Below are positions 13,370-22,099 of a DNA stretch of 58,804 nt, piece by piece. Source of the DNA: Kangiellaceae bacterium (GTDB lineage Bacteria; Pseudomonadota; Gammaproteobacteria; Enterobacterales; Kangiellaceae); the NCBI GenBank assembly GCA_026196875.1, contig JAPHTP010000085.1, forward strand, positions 1 through 58,804. The letters run 5' to 3'. Numbering within the stretch: position 1 is the first letter of the stretch; every line of letters begins with the position of its first letter. A program made the position numbers and the translations under genes. The notes beneath the pieces were generated by a model. The model was given only the letters and a program-made list of their open reading frames with translations. It was not told the origin of the DNA and searched no databases.

Positions 13370-14227
13370 CTAGAATTTCGTTACTCTCTGGTAGAGATCC
13401 GGCCTACGATCCCTGAAAAGCCCCCATGACTCTCTTATTTTTTTGATGTCATTTAAGTCAAAAGTGTGGATTAATATTTCTTCATCGACTTTATTTGCTT
13501 CTTGTACCATAGTACCAAGTTGATCAGAAATAAATGAACTTCCGTAAAAATTAATTTCACATGACGCTCCCACTTCTGTTCCGATCCTATTTGAAGCAAC
13601 AATAGGAATAACATTGGCCGCGCTATGACCTTGCATAACTCTGTGCCAATGCTCACGAGAGTCCCAACTGGGATCTTGAGGTTCCGATCCGATTGCCGTT
13701 GGATAAAATAAAACTTCTGCTCCTTTAAGAGCCATAATTCTAGCCGCTTCTGGAAACCATTGATCCCAACAAATTGCCGCGCCGAATTTTCCAAATTTTG
13801 TTTGCCAGACTTTAAAGCCGGTATCACCAGGTGTAAAATAGAATTTCTCCTGATAACCTGGACCGTCAGGAATATGCGATTTTCGATAATTATCAAGGAT
13901 TGTTCCATTAGCATCTATCATTGCCAGAGAATTAAAAAAAACATTCCCCGATCTTTCAAAGTAGCTAATCGGCAATACAACATTCAATTTTTTAGCAAGC
14001 GACGAAAAATGTTGTAAAATTTTTGAAGTCTCATATGATTCTGCCCATGAAAAATACTTTGGGTCTTGATCTTTACACCAATACAATCCGGCAAACAATT
14101 CCTGCAATAAAACCACATTCGCCCCTCTCTCGCAGGCTTTAGTTATTAGCTCTGTTGCTCGTTCAATGTTTTCATCAAAACGTTCAGTAACGGCAAACTG
14201 AGTGGCTGAGAAAGTTACCTGGTTCAT
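13370..14227 (-). CDS. aguB: N-carbamoylputrescine amidase
   Basis: 285 residues, nitrilase superfamily. Catalytic triad residues are visible: Glu43 in LLQELFAGLYWC, Lys116 in YRKSHIPDGPGY and Cys153 in GAAICWDQWFPEAAR. The IPDGPGYQEKFYFTPGD block is typical of N-carbamoylputrescine amidases. The enzyme hydrolyses N-carbamoylputrescine to putrescine, CO2 and ammonia in the cytoplasm. It is the last gene of the speD-speE-speA-aguA-aguB run, starting 33 bp after aguA, which makes its substrate. Length is normal for the family. Confidence 0.94.
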   Translation of the reverse strand: MNQVTFSATQFAVTERFDENIERATELITKACERGANVVLLQELFAGLYWCKDQDPKYFSWAESYETSKILQHFSSLAKKLNVVLPISYFERSGNVFFNSLAMIDANGTILDNYRKSHIPDGPGYQEKFYFTPGDTGFKVWQTKFGKFGAAICWDQWFPEAARIMALKGAEVLFYPTAIGSEPQDPSWDSREHWHRVMQGHSAANVIPIVASNRIGTEVGASCEINFYGSSFISDQLGTMVQEANKVDEEILIHTFDLNDIKKIRESWGLFRDRRPDLYQRVTKF

Positions 14228-14260
14228 AATGAGTTATCTTCTAAGTTTTCGGCCAGTCAA

Positions 14261-15274
14261 TTAAGCCGGTTGCTGCATAGTAATACAATGAATTCCACCA
14301 CCGCCGACTAATATCTCGTTTGCATCTATGGCAATAGCTTTTCTATCTGCGAATAGTTCACTAATGATTCTAAACGCAGCGTCATCTTGTTTACAACCGA
14401 ACTGAGGTATAACCACTAAATCGTTAGCAATATAGAAATTAATATAGCTCAGCGGCTCCCTGGAATTTTGGACGTATCTTGCCTGTGGCTCTTCGACTTC
14501 AACTAACTCAAAGCCGTATTCAGAAATGGAGCTACGGTTTGCTTGATAAATTTCGTAGTTCTCGCTCATCGAATTGCACCTTTGGCTCAAGATGGTGTTT
14601 TCGTCAGTAAAACAGGCAATATTATCGATGTGTCCATCGGTATCAAGATCGCCGCGAATTCCTTTTTCTAGCCAGATAATTTCGGCAATACCAATCTCTG
14701 ACCTCAACAAGCTTTCTATCTCATGTTGTGAATAACCTGGGTTACGATTTTTATTCAGCAAACATTCTTTAGTGGTAAGAACCTTCCCAGCGCCGTTTGA
14801 GTGAACCGAGCCGCCTTCCAAAACAAAGTCGACTTTTCTACCCTTAGAATGCGATTGTTCAATAATTCTCTGACCGATTTTTTGGTCTTGATTATAGGGA
14901 AAGAATTTATTCCCCCACCCATTAAATTCAAAATCCAAAGCAACAAGCTGTTTTTCCTCTCGGATCCAAATTGGCGCTGTATCGCGTGTCCAACTATCGT
15001 CGAATGCCATTTCAATTAGATCTATTTCGCTATTAAGCTTTTTTGTCGCAAATAACTTGTGTTCCTTATTGACCAACATTGACAGCGGTTCATATTCGCT
15101 GATCAGATTAGCAATCTGACAAAAGGCGAGCTGAGCTGTTTCTAAACCATTGCTCCAGATTTCTTCACGACATGGAAAAGCCATCCAGGTTCTGGCATGC
15201 GGCTCCCACTCGGCGGGCCATCTTTTTGTTGTCTCTAGATCTTGAAGCAAATAATCTTCCTTGCTAGTCCGCAA
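14261..15274 (-). CDS. aguA: Agmatine deiminase
   Basis: 337 residues, guanidino-modifying (pentein) fold. The N-terminal region RWPAEWEPHARTWMAFPC and the C-terminal catalytic loop GGGGIHCITMQQP (Cys330) are diagnostic of agmatine deiminases; DGHIDNIACF carries the catalytic His. The product hydrolyses agmatine to N-carbamoylputrescine and ammonia. The probable start is TTG 15274, seven bases after the speA stop, because no ATG precedes the conserved N-terminal block; later TTG codons are also possible. The gene is placed between speA (makes agmatine) and aguB (uses N-carbamoylputrescine). Confidence 0.93.
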   Translation of the reverse strand: MRTSKEDYLLQDLETTKRWPAEWEPHARTWMAFPCREEIWSNGLETAQLAFCQIANLISEYEPLSMLVNKEHKLFATKKLNSEIDLIEMAFDDSWTRDTAPIWIREEKQLVALDFEFNGWGNKFFPYNQDQKIGQRIIEQSHSKGRKVDFVLEGGSVHSNGAGKVLTTKECLLNKNRNPGYSQHEIESLLRSEIGIAEIIWLEKGIRGDLDTDGHIDNIACFTDENTILSQRCNSMSENYEIYQANRSSISEYGFELVEVEEPQARYVQNSREPLSYINFYIANDLVVIPQFGCKQDDAAFRIISELFADRKAIAIDANEILVGGGGIHCITMQQPA

Positions 15275-15280
15275 TTATAA

Positions 15281-17236
15281 CTAATCTTCTAAATAGCAAT
15301 ATCCGTAAATTCCTTGACGCAATTCGGCTAAGTACTGTCGCTGAATGTTTTGTGGAATATCGGACTCTTTCAACTGTCGCTTGTACGACTCTAGCAATGA
15401 CTTTGAGCCAAAGTCTACATAGTCTAATAGTTCTTCAACTGTTGAACCACTTTCAGTGGCAATGATTTTTAGTTCATCATTATCATCTAGTTCTAAATCT
15501 ATCGTATGCGTGTCGCCGAACAAATTGTGCATATCTCCAAGTATTTCCTGATAAGCACCAACCATAAAAAGTCCCAATAAGTACTCTTTATCATTGTTAA
15601 AAGTAGGAAGGTCGATAGTTGAGGTTATTTGTTGCTGATTGACATACCGACTCAACATGCCGTCACTATCACATGTGATATCTTGGAGCACCGCGGTTTC
15701 CGAGGGAAATTCTGCAAGATTTTCTAAAGGCATCAGTGGAAATATTTGATCAATAGCCCAGGCATCAGGTAAAGATTGGAATATTGAAAAATTAACAAAA
15801 AATTTGCTAGCAAGTTTTTCTCTTAGCAGCTCAAACAATTCAAACTCGGATTGATTGCTTGGTTGTAACTTGCTTTTAATTGCAAACAAGATCATCCGAT
15901 AAGTTCTTTCGGCCAAGGCTCTTTCTGAAAGCGTTACCACTCCATGGTTAAATAGCTCTTGAGTTTGCTTCAAACCATATTCAGCATTATGAAAACACTC
16001 GATTAGTCTATTGCTTTCGGAGTCAGCTACAGACTCCGCAACTAGGAGTGACTCCCATAACTCATGGACAATCGAATGGGATTCACGGGAAGGCTCAACA
16101 AGATCGACTTCTCTCATTCTTTCACTGTCGATAACATTCGCGACTAAAACCGCATGATGCGCGGTTAATGCTCTCCCCGATTCGGTAATAATTGAAGGGT
16201 GGGGTAATTGGTTTTCTTCTGCAATATTTGCAAAAGCTCCAACGACATTGTTAGCGTATTCTTCTAAAGAATAATTCACTGAACAATGGCTTTGACTTTT
16301 CGTTCCTTCGTAATCTACACCGAGTCCGCCACCAACATCTACTGTCGAAACAGGTACTTTAAGTTGATGCAACTCAGCATAAAATCTTGCACATTCTTTC
16401 AACGCATTTTGAATGTCGCGAATAGAAGTAATTTGTGATCCTAGATGAAAGTGGATTAGCTGAAAAATAGATAACTGATTAATCGACTTAAGCTTTTCTA
16501 CGACTCTGAGTATTTGGCTTGCGGAGAGCCCAAACTTTGAATGTTCCCCCCCAGAATCTTGCCACTTACTTTCGCCTTTCGAGGCCAGTCTTGCCCTTAC
16601 GCCGATTCGAGGGGAGACTCCCATTTCTTGTGACTCACCTAGCACCAACTCAAGCTCCGAGAGCTTTTCAACGACAATAAAAACCCTGTGTCCTAACCGT
16701 GTTGCAATCAATGCAGCACGAATATATTCCTTATCTTTATATCCGTTACAAACTATTGTTGAATCAGTATTTTCAGATAGAGCTAATACAGCCATCAATT
16801 CCGGCTTACTTCCAGCTTCCAAACCAACTTGAGGCTTACTCAAAGATTTATTCGCGTTAACTAGCCCTTCGACAACTCGGCGCTGTTGATTCACTTTAAT
16901 CGGATAACATACAGTATAATCACCTTGAAATGCGTGCTCCAAAATTGAGGTGTTAAACGCATTACATAAGGATCTAACTCTATGCTTAAGAATGTCGACA
17001 AATCGAAATAAAGCCGGCATTTGCATGCCCTTGCTTTGGATCTGACAACAGATGTCTGAGAGAGGAAAAACCAAATCTTGCTTATTCGGATCAGGACGAA
17101 CAACTAATTGACCGTTATCGTTCAGATCAAAGAATTGCTCGCTCCAATTAGGCAAGTTATAAAACTTGCGGGCGCTTTCAATATCCCACATGGCAGCAGA
17201 AAACTGTTGCGGAGAATGACTGTTGAAAGCGCTCAT
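15281..17236 (-). CDS. speA: Biosynthetic arginine decarboxylase
   Basis: 651 residues, ATG 17236. A fold-III PLP-dependent decarboxylase: the PLP lysine is Lys114 in YTVCYPIKVNQQR, followed by GLEAGSKPEL and the HFHLGSQ segment, the VDVGGGLGVDYEG phosphate-binding loop and TESGRALTAHHAV. Length matches SpeA of the proteobacteria (about 630-660). It converts arginine to agmatine and CO2. It starts 10 bp after speE and its stop lies six bases before aguA, so the run is clearly one transcription unit. Confidence 0.95.
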   Translation of the reverse strand: MSAFNSHSPQQFSAAMWDIESARKFYNLPNWSEQFFDLNDNGQLVVRPDPNKQDLVFPLSDICCQIQSKGMQMPALFRFVDILKHRVRSLCNAFNTSILEHAFQGDYTVCYPIKVNQQRRVVEGLVNANKSLSKPQVGLEAGSKPELMAVLALSENTDSTIVCNGYKDKEYIRAALIATRLGHRVFIVVEKLSELELVLGESQEMGVSPRIGVRARLASKGESKWQDSGGEHSKFGLSASQILRVVEKLKSINQLSIFQLIHFHLGSQITSIRDIQNALKECARFYAELHQLKVPVSTVDVGGGLGVDYEGTKSQSHCSVNYSLEEYANNVVGAFANIAEENQLPHPSIITESGRALTAHHAVLVANVIDSERMREVDLVEPSRESHSIVHELWESLLVAESVADSESNRLIECFHNAEYGLKQTQELFNHGVVTLSERALAERTYRMILFAIKSKLQPSNQSEFELFELLREKLASKFFVNFSIFQSLPDAWAIDQIFPLMPLENLAEFPSETAVLQDITCDSDGMLSRYVNQQQITSTIDLPTFNNDKEYLLGLFMVGAYQEILGDMHNLFGDTHTIDLELDDNDELKIIATESGSTVEELLDYVDFGSKSLLESYKRQLKESDIPQNIQRQYLAELRQGIYGYCYLED

Positions 17237-17246
17237 AGGTTTGTGG

Positions 17247-18110
17247 TTAATCTTGAGCTGTATCGCTAAGCGCGTCTATTACATATTGCGGTAAAGCAAA
17301 TGCTGCAACGTGAAGCGCGGGATTATAATAGCGAGTTTTAAACCCAGCGGAACCAAATCGTTCCTGGATGACTTCCACCGATTGATTTCGTAGCGCTGGA
17401 TTATCTGTTCCCCATGATAACGTCATTATCCCTCCAACATAAGTTGGCACAGGTACCGAGTAAAACCAACGATCTGCAAAGATGCCGTTAAAGCGAGAAT
17501 AAGTAGCCTGAACTTCATCTAATTGCATAAAGCTCACGCCGTTTTGGGTAGCGAGAATTCCACCTTCGTTAAGCGCGTTTTTACAACCTTGATAGAATCG
17601 AGAGGTAAATAAAACTTCTCCCGGACCTTCTGGATCAGTTGAATCTGAAATAACAACATCAAACTTTTCTTGGTTGTTCACTACAAAATCAACGCCATCA
17701 GCAATAACTAAATTGACCCGCGGATCATCGAACGCGCCAGCTGAATGCTTAGGAAAGTAATTCTTACACATATCAACCACAGCGGAATCAATTTCAACCA
17801 TAGTCACATGTTCAACTAGTGAATGTCTTAAAACTTCTCTCAGAATTCCGCCGTCACCACCACCTATGATCAATACCCGCTTAGCATTGCCATGGGCAAA
17901 AAGTGGTACGTGAGTTAACATCTCATGATAAATAAATTCATCTTTTTCGGTAGTTTGAACAATGCCGTCCAATGCCATCACATTACCAAATTGTTCATTT
18001 TTAAAAATAATCAAATGTTGATGTTCGGTACGATTTTCAAACAATACTTCGTCGATCACATAGCTTTGACCGTAGGAGTTATACAGCGTTTCTGTAAAAC
18101 GTTTTGCCAT
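17247..18110 (-). CDS. speE: Polyamine aminopropyltransferase (spermidine synthase)
   Basis: 287 residues, ATG 18110. The Rossmann-type site for decarboxylated AdoMet is seen as [17 protein letters not shown], the acidic residue after strand 2 in VTMVEID, and the catalytic region [21 protein letters not shown]. It transfers an aminopropyl group to putrescine to give spermidine. It lies downstream of speD, which supplies the donor, and directly upstream of speA. A 174-bp gap holding a REP-like sequence separates it from speD. Confidence 0.95.
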
Positions 18111-18140
18111 GGGAATTAAACCTAAAGAAAATTTATCTTC

Positions 18141-18260
18141 GTAGGAGCAGCTTCAGTACTTCGAACAGACGGATAAGTTTTACATCATGTCAGTCAAACT
18201 TTGATCCGTGTCTGGGAATACTTACCTCGCGCAGCGTTTGGGTACGCCACTCCTACTTAA
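18141..18260. repeat. REP-like inverted repeat between speD and speE
   Basis: GTAGGAGCAGC near 18143 is mirrored by GCCACTCCTAC ending near 18257, with G-T wobble pairs, so the ends of this ~115-base segment form an imperfect 11-bp stem. The GTAGGAG(C)NGCTTCAG start resembles the repetitive extragenic palindromes common in gammaproteobacteria. It may modulate the speD to speE transcript ratio. Confidence 0.4.
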
Positions 18261-18284
18261 CTATTTTTAGCTCGAAACTAATAT

Positions 18285-18764
18285 TCATTTTAGTGCAATA
18301 TTTTCACCACGTAGAATTTCTCTAACGTCTATTTTAGATGGTGTAAAAGCTCTGCGAAAAATATCTGCAGCTTTATGAGGTTCAGCATCACCGCACATAA
18401 AGACGTCAAAAGCAGCGTAGTCTGCTTCCGGCCATGTATGCACACTAATGTGAGACTCAGCTAAAACTGCAACACCAGAAATACCACCATTTGGGGTAAA
18501 GTGATGCATATGGATGTGAAGTAACGTTGCACCGCATTCCCTAATTGCATCACGGAATGCCTGCTCCATTACTTGAAGGTTGTCTAACTTAGATGCGCCC
18601 CATAAGTCGATTATTATATGTGTACCGGCAAATGTCTTGCCTTCGCGTCTGACAAAATGATCGTTTCGCTCATCGTTCTGATTGACATTATTAAATTCAG
18701 GCCAATCAGCCTCTGTTGCGACTGTTGGATCAATCTCAGAATTATAGTCGAAGCTATCTAGCAC
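18285..18764 (-). CDS. speD: S-adenosylmethionine decarboxylase proenzyme, short (class 1B/SpeH-like) type
   Basis: 159 residues from GTG 18764, with GGGAG upstream at usable spacing. The self-cleavage site LAESHISVHTWPE gives Glu103-Ser104, Ser104 becoming the pyruvoyl group; the acid/base region LHIHMHHFTPNGG and the ADYAAFDVFMCGDA block follow the class 1B pattern (Bacillus/Thermotoga form, about 120-130 residues), not the 264-residue E. coli form. Compared with that form it has an acidic N-terminal extension of about 40 residues before GTHIIIDLWG. It supplies decarboxylated AdoMet for SpeE and is the first gene of the polyamine run. Confidence 0.92.
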   Translation of the reverse strand: MLDSFDYNSEIDPTVATEADWPEFNNVNQNDERNDHFVRREGKTFAGTHIIIDLWGASKLDNLQVMEQAFRDAIRECGATLLHIHMHHFTPNGGISGVAVLAESHISVHTWPEADYAAFDVFMCGDAEPHKAADIFRRAFTPSKIDVREILRGENIALK

Positions 18765-19258: not shown

Positions 19259-19600
19259 TTATTGGGAACTGTTCTCCTCAGGTCTACAGCACTCATTAAT
19301 GCAGCACTCTTCCTGGAGGTAAGCTATTACTTCGGATAGCGAGTCAAATTGAGGCTGACAATAGAGTGTACGACTTTCTCTAACCTGTTTAACTAAGCCA
19401 ACCTTAACCATTTTGGCGATATGATGAGAAAGCGTCGAACCAGGGATCTGGAGTTCTTCTTGAATTGCTCCTACAGGTGAGCCATTATGCCCAGCTCTAA
19501 CTAAATGCTTAAAAATCAATAGCCTAGTAGGATGTCCCAGCTCGGCTATTCGTTCCGCAATTTGTACCAAACGGTTATCGCTATCTTTACCTAACGTCAT
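19259..19600 (-). CDS. arsR: ArsR-family arsenic-responsive repressor
   Basis: 113 residues from ATG 19600, which has AGAGG five bases upstream; a GTG five codons earlier is possible but less well placed. A winged helix-turn-helix of the ArsR/SmtB family is seen: LGHPTRLLIFKHLV, then recognition helix PGSTLSHHIAKMVKVGLV and a wing around RESRTLYC. The canonical ELCVC metal site in helix 3 is absent. Instead two vicinal cysteine pairs end the protein (EECCINECC), resembling the C-terminal thiolate site of Acidithiobacillus ferrooxidans-type ArsR. It is divergently transcribed from arsP, with two operators in between, so it presumably represses both directions until As(III) binds. Confidence 0.88.
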   Translation of the reverse strand: MTLGKDSDNRLVQIAERIAELGHPTRLLIFKHLVRAGHNGSPVGAIQEELQIPGSTLSHHIAKMVKVGLVKQVRESRTLYCQPQFDSLSEVIAYLQEECCINECCRPEENSSQ

Positions 19601-19638
19601 TCTTACCTCTGCCACTCAAATAAAACCAAATCAAATGT

Positions 19639-19668
19639 TTGACATTTCGATAATACTAGAAATATAAT
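19639..19668 (+). promoter_or_regulatory. Promoter for arsP and glutathione synthetase
   Basis: TTGACA (19639-19644) and TATAAT (19663-19668) are both consensus, with an 18-base spacer. The spacer contains operator 1, and operator 2 begins right after the -10 box, so repressor binding would occlude RNA polymerase. Confidence 0.7.
19644..19663. promoter_or_regulatory. ArsR operator 1 (ATTTC-N10-GAAAT)
   Basis: An inverted repeat of ATTTC (19644-19648) and GAAAT (19659-19663) with a 10-base centre. It lies in the spacer of the arsP promoter and overlaps the -10 of the reverse promoter. Confidence 0.68.
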
Positions 19669-19678
19669 ATTTCGACAA
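19650..19678 (-). promoter_or_regulatory. Promoter for arsR
   Basis: On the minus strand TTGTCG (19678-19673) and TATTAT (19655-19650) are separated by 17 bases. The promoter overlaps both operators and the arsP promoter, giving autoregulated divergent transcription. Confidence 0.55.
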
Positions 19679-19688
19679 TTCCGGAAAT
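19669..19688. promoter_or_regulatory. ArsR operator 2 (ATTTC-N10-GAAAT)
   Basis: The same ATTTC-N10-GAAAT arrangement as operator 1, displaced by exactly 25 bp. It covers the start region of the arsP transcript and the -35 of arsR. Confidence 0.68.
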
Positions 19689-19746
19689 ATAGATTAATCA
19701 AAATATTTCTTTCAATGAGACGATTGGATTCGATAGGTATTGACGA

Positions 19747-20682
19747 ATGAATGACCAACTAATAGAAGCGTTGAAGTTTTTTATTACCGTATTTAGTGAG
19801 CTAGCAGTACTGTTTATTTTGATCAGCTTTTTTGTTGCTTGGCTTAATAGCAAGTTACCACCGGAAAAAGTAAAACAGCTACTTCAAGGAAACAGAGGCT
19901 ATGCCGTTGCAGTAGGGTTAGGTGCAGCGACACCTTTTTGCAGTTGCTCTACTTTGCCGATGACTATCGGGTTAATCCAAGCACGTGCAGCATTTGGCCC
20001 AATAATGGCTTTTTTATTTACAAGTCCATTGCTTAACCCATTTATAGTAGGATTATTCTGGATCAGTTTTGGTGCGCAAATTACCTTGATTTACTCAGTT
20101 TTCGTTCTTGGCTTAGCGATTACCAGCGGGTTTATTCTGGAGAAATTAAAGTTTGACCGATTTATTCGTGACGACTTGTTTGTTAACCAATGCAACTCCG
20201 AAGATAAAAAATCTGATTCTACTACTTGCAACTCTTCTCACAAAAATAAAGAAAACCATAATAACGGGGGCGATAAAAAACAACGTTTCGCTTTGCTCAC
20301 CGCAGCAACTAAACAATTCATTTCTTTTGCGCCATACATGGCGATTGGTGTAGCCGTTGGTGCGTTCCTTCATGGCTATGTTCCTCAATCATTTTTTGAG
20401 TCAATCTCCAGCCTGGCCAGTTGGTGGCTAATTCCAGCCGCGGCAATTATTGGCGTGTTCTTATATGTAAGAGCTTCGACTATGGTTCCAATTGCAACCT
20501 CTTTGATTGCCAAGGGAATGAGCATGGGAGCGATTATGTCGTTGACTATTGCCGGCGCAGGGGCAAGTTTACCGGAAATGATTATGATGAAAAGAATGTT
20601 TCATTGGCCATTGATAATTGCCTTCATTTTGTTGGTATTTACTACCGCTTGTTTAACTGGCTTTGCGATAGATCTTCTATAG
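19747..20682 (+). CDS. arsP: ArsP-type permease (DUF318), arsenical efflux
   Basis: 311 residues, ATG 19747. A polytopic membrane protein of the permease family PF03773 with two homologous halves: helices about 10-135, a hydrophilic cytoplasmic loop (about 150-180) rich in Ser, Lys and Asn, then helices about 190-310. The diagnostic motif ATPFCSCSTLP lies in the first half; cysteines of this motif bind trivalent arsenicals in characterised ArsP. Family members export trivalent organoarsenicals; other DUF318 proteins move different ions. The position behind ArsR operators supports arsenic efflux. The stop lies 10 bp before the glutathione synthetase gene, with AGGAG between, so the two genes are co-transcribed. 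Confidence 0.85.
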   Translation: MNDQLIEALKFFITVFSELAVLFILISFFVAWLNSKLPPEKVKQLLQGNRGYAVAVGLGAATPFCSCSTLPMTIGLIQARAAFGPIMAFLFTSPLLNPFIVGLFWISFGAQITLIYSVFVLGLAITSGFILEKLKFDRFIRDDLFVNQCNSEDKKSDSTTCNSSHKNKENHNNGGDKKQRFALLTAATKQFISFAPYMAIGVAVGAFLHGYVPQSFFESISSLASWWLIPAAAIIGVFLYVRASTMVPIATSLIAKGMSMGAIMSLTIAGAGASLPEMIMMKRMFHWPLIIAFILLVFTTACLTGFAIDLL

Positions 20683-20692
20683 GAGAACAAAT

Positions 20693-22099
20693 ATGACAAG
20701 AGGACAGGTATTTTCGACCCGTTGCTGTGCAACCAATGCTAGGTTAGAACATGACATAGCGATAACGCAACGAGAAAAATTACTCGGACTTAATAAGAAC
20801 GGCGTGGATATGGAGCCAACCAAATTCTCCCCTTGCGCTATTAGTTTAACTCCTTGGAAGTTAGAAAAAACTCAGTTTGAACAAGCGATAGAAACATCTA
20901 GAAACTTTAGTCGACTACTACAAAGCCTGTCACAAAATATAGACTTGTTGCTTGCCCTACTAAACAACTTTCAAGATAAAGACAGTTTACTCTTTAAGCT
21001 GAAAGAGCAAATAGCTTCTCGCAACAGAAAATCAGACTACTTGTCGGAGAATCTAAACTTAAGTCGTTATGACTTTTTACTAAACAATAACGACCAATGG
21101 CAATTAGTTGAGAGTAACGCGATAGCCGCGGGCATGGGTCCATTTAGCGAAAAGCTGGGTGAGCTATGCGAGGAATATCCAATTGAAAAATCTCAAAGGC
21201 TCGCACAGAACCCGTCAATAGGGAAGCAAGCAGGAGCCATGTATCAAGCAGCAAGTCGACTAAATAATACACGTTCTCCTGGGATTGTTTTTGTAATAGA
21301 ACAAAATGAAGATAATATTTTCGACCAAAACTATTTGATTGAAGAACTAGAAAGGTTAGGAGCTAAGACACTCAGGCGGACTTTTAATGAGCTATCCAAT
21401 TCGCTGTTCAGTAAAGACAACAGGCTAAGGCTTAAGGACTTCGGAGAGATTGATCTGCTGTACTTCAGAACCGGATATAACTTGCAAGATTATTCTGAAG
21501 ATATCCCCGAAAAAAATATTCAGCTGAGGGACTGGATAGAAAAGCACAGAGTAATTGTATCACCAAGCATTGCACATCAAATATCCTCTTCTAAATGGGT
21601 GCAAATCAAGCTAGCCAATATGGCTGAGAATGAATTGACAGATAGATTTTCTTTAACAGCAAAAGAAGCCTTACAAATCAAATTGAGTTTGGCGGTTAAA
21701 TACGAGCTAGTTGAAAACATATGGCAAGTTAAACGCGCTCTGCAATCCGGAGATTGGTTACTAAAAAACCAAAATGAAGGCGGAGGTAATGTAACTGACG
21801 ATATGTCGGCACTTCCAGATATTGAAACTCTCCAACAATCCTATTTCTTAATGGAAAAAATTGAAAGTAAACTACGTTCAAATGTATGTCGTTTTAGTGG
21901 TTACGCTATTGAATGTTTGTCTCAGGTAGTTTCCGAACTAGGTATTTTCATGGTTGGAGATGAGCATGAATATGGAGGCTATTTACTAAGAAGTAAACCT
22001 TTCGGTCAAGTTGAAGGGGGCGTGCATGGCGGTAATGGATTTTTGGATGTGGTAGCGTTTGATGAGAAACCTAGAGCTAGAATTTTGACATGTTGTTAG
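20693..22099 (+). CDS. Glutathione synthetase, eukaryotic (GSS/GSH2) type
   Basis: 468 residues, ATG 20693 with AGGAG seven bases upstream. It matches the eukaryotic glutathione synthetase fold (about 474 residues) along its whole length and not the bacterial GshB ATP-grasp (about 315). Visible blocks in order: NLSRYDFLLNN (gamma-Glu-Cys/glutathione-site region), VESNAIAAGMG (Glu and Asn of the Mg/substrate site), NIFDQ, RRTF, LLYFRTGY, KWVQIKLA, the ATP-binding loop LKNQNEGGGN, SYFLMEKIE, SELGIF, GGYLLRSK and EGGVHGGNGFLD. The loop differs from the animal KPQREGGGNN at P to N and R to N. The expected reaction is gamma-Glu-Cys + Gly + ATP to glutathione. A gene for glutamate-cysteine ligase is not adjacent. 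Being the second gene of an ArsR-controlled operon suggests glutathione (or a variant thiol) supply for arsenical binding and export. A CC pair ends the protein. Confidence 0.85.
   Translation: MTRGQVFSTRCCATNARLEHDIAITQREKLLGLNKNGVDMEPTKFSPCAISLTPWKLEKTQFEQAIETSRNFSRLLQSLSQNIDLLLALLNNFQDKDSLLFKLKEQIASRNRKSDYLSENLNLSRYDFLLNNNDQWQLVESNAIAAGMGPFSEKLGELCEEYPIEKSQRLAQNPSIGKQAGAMYQAASRLNNTRSPGIVFVIEQNEDNIFDQNYLIEELERLGAKTLRRTFNELSNSLFSKDNRLRLKDFGEIDLLYFRTGYNLQDYSEDIPEKNIQLRDWIEKHRVIVSPSIAHQISSSKWVQIKLANMAENELTDRFSLTAKEALQIKLSLAVKYELVENIWQVKRALQSGDWLLKNQNEGGGNVTDDMSALPDIETLQQSYFLMEKIESKLRSNVCRFSGYAIECLSQVVSELGIFMVGDEHEYGGYLLRSKPFGQVEGGVHGGNGFLDVVAFDEKPRARILTCC

What the first reader, a model, noticed from the sequence alone, without database searches (positions are those of the whole stretch)
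19259..22099. Eukaryotic-type glutathione synthetase in an ArsR-controlled arsenic operon
The second gene behind ArsP encodes a 468-residue protein that follows the animal/yeast glutathione synthetase along its length (NIFDQ, RRTF, LLYFRTGY, EGGGN loop, SELGIF, EGGVHGGNGFLD), not the bacterial GshB fold. This fold is uncommon in bacteria and its placement under twin ArsR operators is striking. Inference: arsenic exposure induces both the permease and thiol synthesis, giving export of glutathione-conjugated arsenicals. The P to N and R to N changes in the ATP loop may alter substrate specificity, for example for a variant thiol.
Basis: partly seen in the sequence, partly recalled or inferred. 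Interest (0 to 1): 0.78.

Follow-up and report, generated by a model that had tools for sequence, protein, structure and literature searches.

The report
Arsenic-controlled second glutathione-synthetase-like enzyme
A marine-type bacterium carries, beside its normal glutathione genes, a second enzyme of the animal/plant glutathione-synthetase kind under an arsenic-type switch and next to an arsenic-type exporter, and changes in its pocket suggest that it may make a glutathione-like molecule rather than plain glutathione.

Summary
Window 19259-22099 is a divergent arsR, then a PF03773 (ArsP-type) permease and a eukaryotic-type glutathione synthetase (GSS) homologue, behind twin operators overlapping a perfect sigma-70 promoter. 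The fold is eukaryotic GSS, not GshB; it is rare (38 of 295 genomes of the order, 2 of 369 of the class sample).

New here: (1) the genome has gshA and canonical gshB, as do 18 of 18 other hosts tested: this is a second ligase. (2) The gene lies in a supported clade of 14 rows where arsR-permease-GSS is found 14 of 14 times. (3) All 87 bacterial homologues aligned keep the catalytic and gamma-glutamyl residues but have His for glycine-site Ala462; the protein misses the TIGR01986 cut-off (157 vs 330 bits). (4) In Vibrionaceae relatives the gene sits with an extra gshA, supporting gamma-Glu-Cys as donor.

Best reading: an arsenical-induced gamma-Glu-Cys ligase supplying a GSH-type thiol to permease-based detoxification. 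Whether the third residue is glycine is open; conjugate export is unproven. GSS and permease in ars modules were already drawn, unanalysed, in a Shewanella paper.

The parts
19259..19615 (-). arsR: ArsR/SmtB repressor, Cys104-Cys105 aligned with Cys95-Cys96 of PDB 6j05, plus Cys109-Cys110
   Evidence: HTH_20 and HTH_5 over cut-off; NCBIfam HTH_metalloreg 52.6 bits, just under its cut-off of 55; phmmer to 6j05, 38 bits; Cys positions
19639..19668 (+). promoter TTGACA-18-TATAAT for permease-GSS
   Evidence: 12 of 12 consensus bases; TTGACA also in the intergenic stretch of 12 of 14 clade-A loci, window included, read by eye
19644..19663 (.). operator 1 ATTTCGATAATACTAGAAAT, inside the promoter spacer
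19669..19688 (.). operator 2 ATTTCGACAATTCCGGAAAT (7-nt inverted arms ATATTTC/GAAATAT)
19747..20682 (+). PF03773 ArsP-type permease, 311 aa, TPFCSC motif
   Evidence: ArsP_1 171.9 bits, cut-off 32.3; best NCBIfam models SaoE 103.4 (cut-off 325) and SO_0444 98.3 (cut-off 300); CSC at residues 65-67
20693..22099 (+). eukaryotic-type glutathione-synthetase-like ATP-grasp ligase, 468 aa; His445 in the acceptor loop
22176..22197 (+). 9-bp hairpin 76 nt after the GSS stop, no clear T-tract: weak candidate for the end of the transcript
   Evidence: ViennaRNA fold of a 40-nt stretch, -11.6 kcal/mol

Best explanation
An ArsR-controlled arsenical-detoxification operon. When trivalent arsenical binds the C-terminal cysteines of ArsR, the repressor leaves the twin operators and permease and ligase are made together (inferred). 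The ligase is a second, dedicated ATP-dependent gamma-Glu-Cys ligase of the eukaryotic GSS fold; it joins gamma-Glu-Cys to a C-terminal amino acid and makes a GSH-type tripeptide thiol, which acts as ligand or reductant for the arsenical that the ArsP-type permease removes. Shown by sequence: gene layout, fold, intact catalytic set, linkage in the clade, redundancy with canonical GshB. Inferred: inducer, donor substrate, role of the thiol, transport. Open: whether the third residue is glycine.
For: arsR / permease / GSS together in 14 of 14 clade-A loci; clade supported 100/99. Operators and promoter. Residues aligned with human R125, E144, N146, E214, N216, Q220, R267, Y270, K305, K364, E368, E425, R450, K452 (human numbers and roles recalled; alignment) identical in 87 of 87. 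Gamma-Glu-Cys as donor: in Vibrionaceae relatives the gene lies with an extra gshA (example L092: TIGR01434 493 bits, over cut-off), found within 5 kb in 9 of 73 clade-B loci; 7 of 7 such genomes tested carry two GshA. Canonical GshB over cut-off in 18 of 18 genomes searched, 11 of them clade A, and in the own genome. ArsR Cys pair: 6j05 C95/C96; a Shewanella profunda relative (L120), with the start codon as called, has Cys101-Cys102 as published for SpArsR (PMC13236881 passages) and is divergent from a permease and GSS. ars genes (ArsA, ArsD, SBF/Acr3-type, ArsC) lie near some clade-B relatives.
Against: No induction, activity or transport data. The permease passes no equivalog cut-off, so arsenic as its cargo is inferred from ArsR and family. 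Clade B is mostly not ars-linked: 15 of 73 have a permease, ArsC, Acr3 or ArsA hit within 5 kb, 4 more an ArsR hit only, 36 of 73 none of the markers. The ligase fails the TIGR01986 cut-off. The own genome has complete GSH synthesis, so extra GSH alone gives no obvious gain. No other ars gene was recognised among the ORFs beside the window operon.
Confidence: 0.58

Rival explanations
1. It makes ordinary glutathione: an extra, arsenic-inducible GSH synthetase that raises GSH for arsenate reduction or conjugation; the pocket changes are neutral for glycine use. (This overlaps with the best explanation; it settles the third residue as glycine.)
For: All catalytic and gamma-glutamyl-binding residues kept. 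In PMC5919673 (passages) nematode GSS of clades 1 and 2 prefer glycine although the two alanines are not conserved. [quoted passage not shown]
Against: Canonical GshB present in 19 of 19 genomes tested; His at the glycyl position in 87 of 87 while L125, a more eukaryote-like bacterial GSS over the TIGR01986 cut-off, has Met and plant and yeast have Ala.
Confidence: 0.3
2. The donor is not gamma-Glu-Cys: the scaffold was repurposed for another thiol or carboxylate, as proposed for nematode GSS-like effectors.
For: Clade A diverges faster than its permease in 78 of 78 pairs, unlike clade B (20 of 55); PMC5919673 gives a precedent (passages).
Against: The residues aligned with the gamma-glutamyl contacts are invariant, whereas in the nematode effectors those vary; gshA neighbours in clade B.
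Confidence: 0.13
3. The ligase runs backwards on arsenate (arsenolysis of GSH), giving an unstable acyl-arsenate that thiols reduce; the permease exports the arsenite or arsenical formed.
For: [quoted passage not shown] No hit to the one ArsC query used within 5 kb of the 14 clade-A genes.
Against: No sequence feature points to arsenate; ArsRs with such Cys sites are described as sensing trivalent arsenicals (passages).
Confidence: 0.06
4. The operon handles another soft metal or a reactive sulfur species, and arsenic is incidental.
For: Best NCBIfam models for the permease are SaoE and the SO_0444 Cu/Zn family; ArsR also matches the sulfite-sensing BigR model weakly (28 bits, cut-off 155).
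Against: All below cut-off; a second PF03773 permease of the own genome sits behind an ORF that looks MerR-type (by eye), a likelier Cu/Zn type; Cys pair aligned with AfArsR/SpArsR; arsA, arsD, SBF/Acr3-type and arsC genes near clade-B relatives.
Confidence: 0.12

Closest known systems
Eukaryotic glutathione synthetase (human 2HGS, yeast 1M0T/1M0W, potato 5OES)
   Same: Fold along the whole length and all aligned ATP, Mg and gamma-glutamyl residues
   Different: 21-24% identity in the structural alignments to these; glycyl-loop Ala462 to His445; Ser149 and Ser151 to Ala and Gly; fails TIGR01986 cut-off
Homoglutathione / hydroxymethylglutathione synthetases (soybean hGSHS 3KAJ; rice OsGS2)
   Same: GSS paralogues that take another C-terminal amino acid; in hGSHS the same loop is changed, Ala-Ala to Leu-Pro (PMC3473041, PMC6508825 and PMC5919673 passages; soybean loop seen)
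   Different: Here the loop reads His-Gly (His-Arg or His-Lys in 12 of 14 clade-A rows, His-Ser in 73 of 73 clade-B rows), and the pocket pair before Arg433 is Leu-Leu, not Met-Val
ArsP / SpArsR system of Shewanella putrefaciens 200 (Sput200_1226/1227) and C. jejuni ArsP
   Same: ArsR with a C-terminal Cys pair and a PF03773 permease; Shewanella profunda L120 has arsR (Cys101-Cys102), divergent permease and then a GSS
   Different: The window ArsR has two further Cys (109, 110), so inorganic As(III) sensing is possible; the permease is not assignable by cut-off; whether S. putrefaciens 200 itself has the GSS was not read here
Shewanella / Aeromonas ars modules with 'glutathione synthetase' (pSheB, PMC6429310 Fig. 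3 legend)
   Same: GSS and permease drawn within ars/arr modules (passages and part 1 of section 8)
   Different: No analysis of the enzyme in the parts read; pSheB itself was not fetched. The named Shewanella and Aeromonas rows of this set lie in clade B

Membership tests
Eukaryotic-type glutathione synthase (TIGR01986 equivalog) | Curated score cut-off 329.8 bits | tested here: not met
   157.1 bits; five relatives 145-240 (L045, L061; L066, L092, L043); bacterial control L125 398.7
Eukaryotic-type glutathione synthase | PF03917 and PF03199 domains and the GSS fold | tested here: met
Eukaryotic-type glutathione synthase | Catalytic, ATP/Mg and gamma-glutamyl residues | tested here: met
   identical in 87 of 87 aligned homologues and in the plant and yeast rows; residue roles recalled
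Eukaryotic-type glutathione synthase | Glycyl-binding Ala-Ala loop | tested here: not met
   His445-Gly446; His in 87 of 87; role of Ala462 from a passage of PMC3473041
Eukaryotic-type glutathione synthase | Makes GSH from gamma-Glu-Cys and Gly | not testable with these tools
   needs enzyme assay
Bacterial GshB (TIGR01380) | Model match over 299 bits | tested here: not met
   window gene gave no TIGR01380 hit; the genome's true GshB scores 462
ArsP permease | PF03773 domain and C(S/T)C motif | tested here: met
   motif described in PMC4435449 (passages)
ArsP permease | Curated NCBIfam arsenic efflux model | tested here: not met
   NF037962 27.2 bits, cut-off 100
ArsP permease | Exports MAs(III) | not testable with these tools
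   needs transport assay
AfArsR/SpArsR-type ArsR | Adjacent Cys pair at the AfArsR Cys95-Cys96 position | tested here: met
   Cys104-Cys105 aligned with Cys95-Cys96 of 6j05; that 6j05 is AfArsR is inferred from the matching numbers in PMC13236881
AfArsR-type ArsR | Third Cys ligand for As(III) | tested here: inconclusive
   Cys109 and Cys110 four and five residues after Cys105; in AfArsR the third lies six after

The most novel reading that the evidence does not exclude
The family makes a new low-molecular-weight thiol, gamma-Glu-Cys-X with X other than glycine, dedicated to (organo)arsenical detoxification and switched on by a trivalent-arsenical-sensing ArsR. Clade A would be the arsenic-specialised branch, coupled one to one with an ArsP-type permease that carries the arsenical-thiol complex; the Vibrionaceae gshA-ABC-ABC-GSS-SigZ cluster would make and export a related thiol under stress. 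It would be a bacterial counterpart of homoglutathione or phytochelatin chemistry.
Probability: 0.3. Interest if true: 0.82.

Novelty: new variant of a known kind. Interest (0 to 1): 0.6.

Why it matters
If right, some bacteria devote a separate, arsenic-switched ligase to a GSH-like thiol although they already make GSH, which would add thiol synthesis to the known ars toolbox (efflux, reduction, methylation, oxidation). Relatives sit on plasmids of common enteric bacteria: one clade-B copy has a match in 174 of 5426 complete E. coli genomes (best place of each of the 187 records at least 99% identical), 194 of 199 places on plasmids, and is labelled 'glutathione synthase' in the 8 rows shown. 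A single enzyme assay with gamma-Glu-Cys and an amino-acid panel would decide whether such labels are right.

Tried and rejected
GshB membership: rejected by score and fold. GSS as a replacement for a missing gshB: rejected, gshB and gshA present. Special meaning of the P to N ATP-loop change: rejected, family-wide. Polyamine (glutathionylspermidine-like) role from the neighbouring spermidine genes: rejected, that synteny is seen only in the Aliikangiella rows L045 and L046 besides the window among 87 rows, and GspS/trypanothione synthetase folds come far below GSS. A wider regulon of this ArsR: no support; besides the two exact sites there are eight with one mismatch, against six for the reversed control pattern. 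A solved relative of the permease: none at E up to 1. Literature: the listings of searches showed no paper about such an enzyme; only passages, or for PMC6429310 passages and one section part, of twelve papers were seen, none in whole.

The scan patterns (NxIAAGM[GA]P, E[DN]N[VI][FY]DQx[LY]) bias conservation at those letters; His445 is not in them. Clade B context counts use 5 kb flanks, some cut by contig ends, and few query proteins. Context labels were mine; Pfam or NCBIfam checked examples only; the SigZ-like protein of L061 is below the SigZ cut-offs. Both trees (quick 90 rows; careful 47 rows) agree on the clades but warn of long branches meeting and of unusual letter make-up in clade A; the root is not inferred.
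Full report
WHAT IS THERE. The window (a contig of a 6.28 Mb genome, 188 contigs; nearest named rows are Aliikangiella) holds at 19259-22099 a divergent arsR, a permease and a GSS-like gene. The permease stop and the GSS start are 10 nt apart, with a GGAGA that overlaps the stop codon. Between arsR and permease lie two near-identical 20-mers, the first inside the 18-nt spacer of a perfect TTGACA/TATAAT promoter (the search pattern was written from the sites themselves). Exact matches to a looser form of this pattern occur nowhere else in the genome, so the ArsR looks like a local switch. The same twin arrangement is almost letter-identical in the relatives L045, L046 and L047; TTGACA followed by similar TTC-N10-GAA sites is seen by eye in 12 of 14 clade-A intergenic stretches, window included (L060 has TTGACG, L037 none), not counted against chance.

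WHAT THE ENZYME IS. Profiles, PDB sequences and fold agree on the eukaryotic GSS family. It falls below the TIGR01986 equivalog cut-off, as do the five other family members tested, while a more eukaryote-like GSS of another gammaproteobacterium (L125) passes with 398.7 bits. PF03917 is found in 38 of 295 genomes of the order, 2 of 369 of the class sample and 10 of 398 of the phylum sample, all ten in the order; each count includes the own genome.

NOT NEEDED FOR GSH. The own genome has GshB (462 bits, cut-off 299) and GshA (537 bits). Of 18 further host genomes searched (11 clade A, 7 Vibrionaceae of clade B), 18 have GshB over cut-off and 18 have GshA; the 7 Vibrionaceae have two GshA loci each, one of them in two pieces in G1003.

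TWO CLADES. In the careful 47-row tree clade A (14 rows) is supported 100/99 and clade B (30 of its 73 rows used) 99/97; the 90-row quick tree agrees. Clade B (73 rows) is mixed: an ars marker (permease, ArsC, Acr3 or ArsA) within 5 kb in 15 of 73, an ArsR hit alone in 4, SigZ in 18, GshA in 9, none of the markers in 36 (classes overlap). The Vibrionaceae cluster gshA-ABC-ABC-GSS-sigZ was identified by NCBIfam and Pfam on one example, L092; ArsA, ArsD, ArsC and an SBF (Acr3-type) transporter on Aeromonas examples.

POCKET. All 87 aligned proteins keep Arg125, Glu140, Asn142, Glu206, Asn208, Gln212, Arg259, Tyr262, Lys301, Lys358, Glu362, Glu415, Arg433 and Lys435 (window numbers), which align with the human ATP, Mg and substrate residues (human numbers and roles recalled). 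Ser149 and Ser151 of human become Ala and Gly; PMC5919673 says two serines contact the cysteine by their backbone (passages), so this need not change the donor. Human Ala462, called part of the glycyl site in PMC3473041 (passages), is His in 87 of 87; the next residue is Ser in 73 of 73 of clade B but Arg (8), Lys (4) or Gly (2, the window among them) in clade A. Changing the same loop in fission yeast GSS let it take Ser, though Gly stayed 8.6-fold better, and beta-Ala with two more changes. Also against over-reading: nematode GSS of clades 1 and 2 still prefer glycine without the two alanines.

RATES. Mean identity within clade A (13 loci; L053, without a called permease ORF, left out): GSS 40.6%, permease 57.1%; GSS is the less conserved in 78 of 78 pairs. 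In 11 of the 14 permease-linked clade-B loci GSS is the less conserved in 20 of 55 pairs. Pairs share rows and are not independent. (The ArsR figures are not used: for L066 the script took another ArsR.) This fits a shift or relaxation of constraint around an intact catalytic core.

REGULATOR AND PERMEASE. The ArsR Cys104-Cys105 align with Cys95-Cys96 of PDB 6j05; these numbers match AfArsR as given in PMC13236881 (passages), and SpArsR of S. putrefaciens 200 uses Cys101-Cys102 and senses MAs(III), not As(III) (passages). Several ArsRs of the set have only this C-terminal pair, plus one Cys further upstream (L037, L038, L039, L043, L054, L120); others have further C-terminal Cys; the window has four. 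So organoarsenical sensing is likely in part of the family and inorganic As(III) is possible here. The permease is PF03773 with the TPFCSC motif, described in PMC4435449 for cluster 2 of ArsP (passages), but no curated model assigns its cargo.

MECHANISM. Best reading: derepression by a trivalent arsenical gives permease plus a second gamma-Glu-Cys ligase whose tripeptide product binds or reduces the arsenical.

KNOWN OR NEW. The co-location of 'glutathione synthetase' and 'permease' in Shewanella and Aeromonas ars modules is in the Fig. 3 legend of PMC6429310. The searches named in Tried and rejected listed no analysis of the enzyme, in a library without most subscription journals. New here, as far as those searches go, are the clade structure, the linkage in clade A, redundancy with GshB, the invariant His, the operator footprint and the gshA-linked relatives.

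Noticed in passing
L092:1661-8945 and other Vibrionaceae loci (L103, L106, L108, L117, L122): Cluster of a second gshA, ABC exporter half-genes, the GSS-like gene and in several a SigZ-type sigma factor: looks like a stress-controlled thiol-tripeptide synthesis and export unit (families checked on L092 only).
   Followed up: partly
L125 (unnamed gammaproteobacterium, G411): A GSS that passes the eukaryotic equivalog cut-off (398.7 vs 329.8), on the eukaryote side of the tree; probably a separate acquisition.
   Followed up: partly
L043 (Salmonella plasmid pD90-3), L042 (Citrobacter arsenatis plasmid): Clade-B GSS genes on plasmids; in L043 the gene lies between IS26 copies near an arsR-permease pair and antibiotic-resistance genes, in L042 divergent from an HTH-protein gene (ArsR-like by my clustering) with arsC. 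351 plasmid records have a homologue; 174 of 5426 E. coli genomes match the L043 copy.
   Followed up: partly
L140:5808-7387 (own genome, C38): A second PF03773 permease directly behind an ORF that looks like a MerR-type regulator (by eye), not ArsR: probably a different metal.
   Followed up: no
window 13370-18764 (-): Polyamine genes beside the operon: arginine decarboxylase, spermidine synthase and S-adenosylmethionine decarboxylase by Pfam; the agmatine deiminase and N-carbamoylputrescine amidase names are recalled from the sequence look only.
   Followed up: no
window 20693-20760 and 22091-22096: Cys-Cys pairs near both ends of the ligase (residues 11-12 and 467-468); L035/L045 also has Cys pairs near its N-terminus, the other 13 rows of alignment A1 do not. 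Meaning unknown.
   Followed up: no
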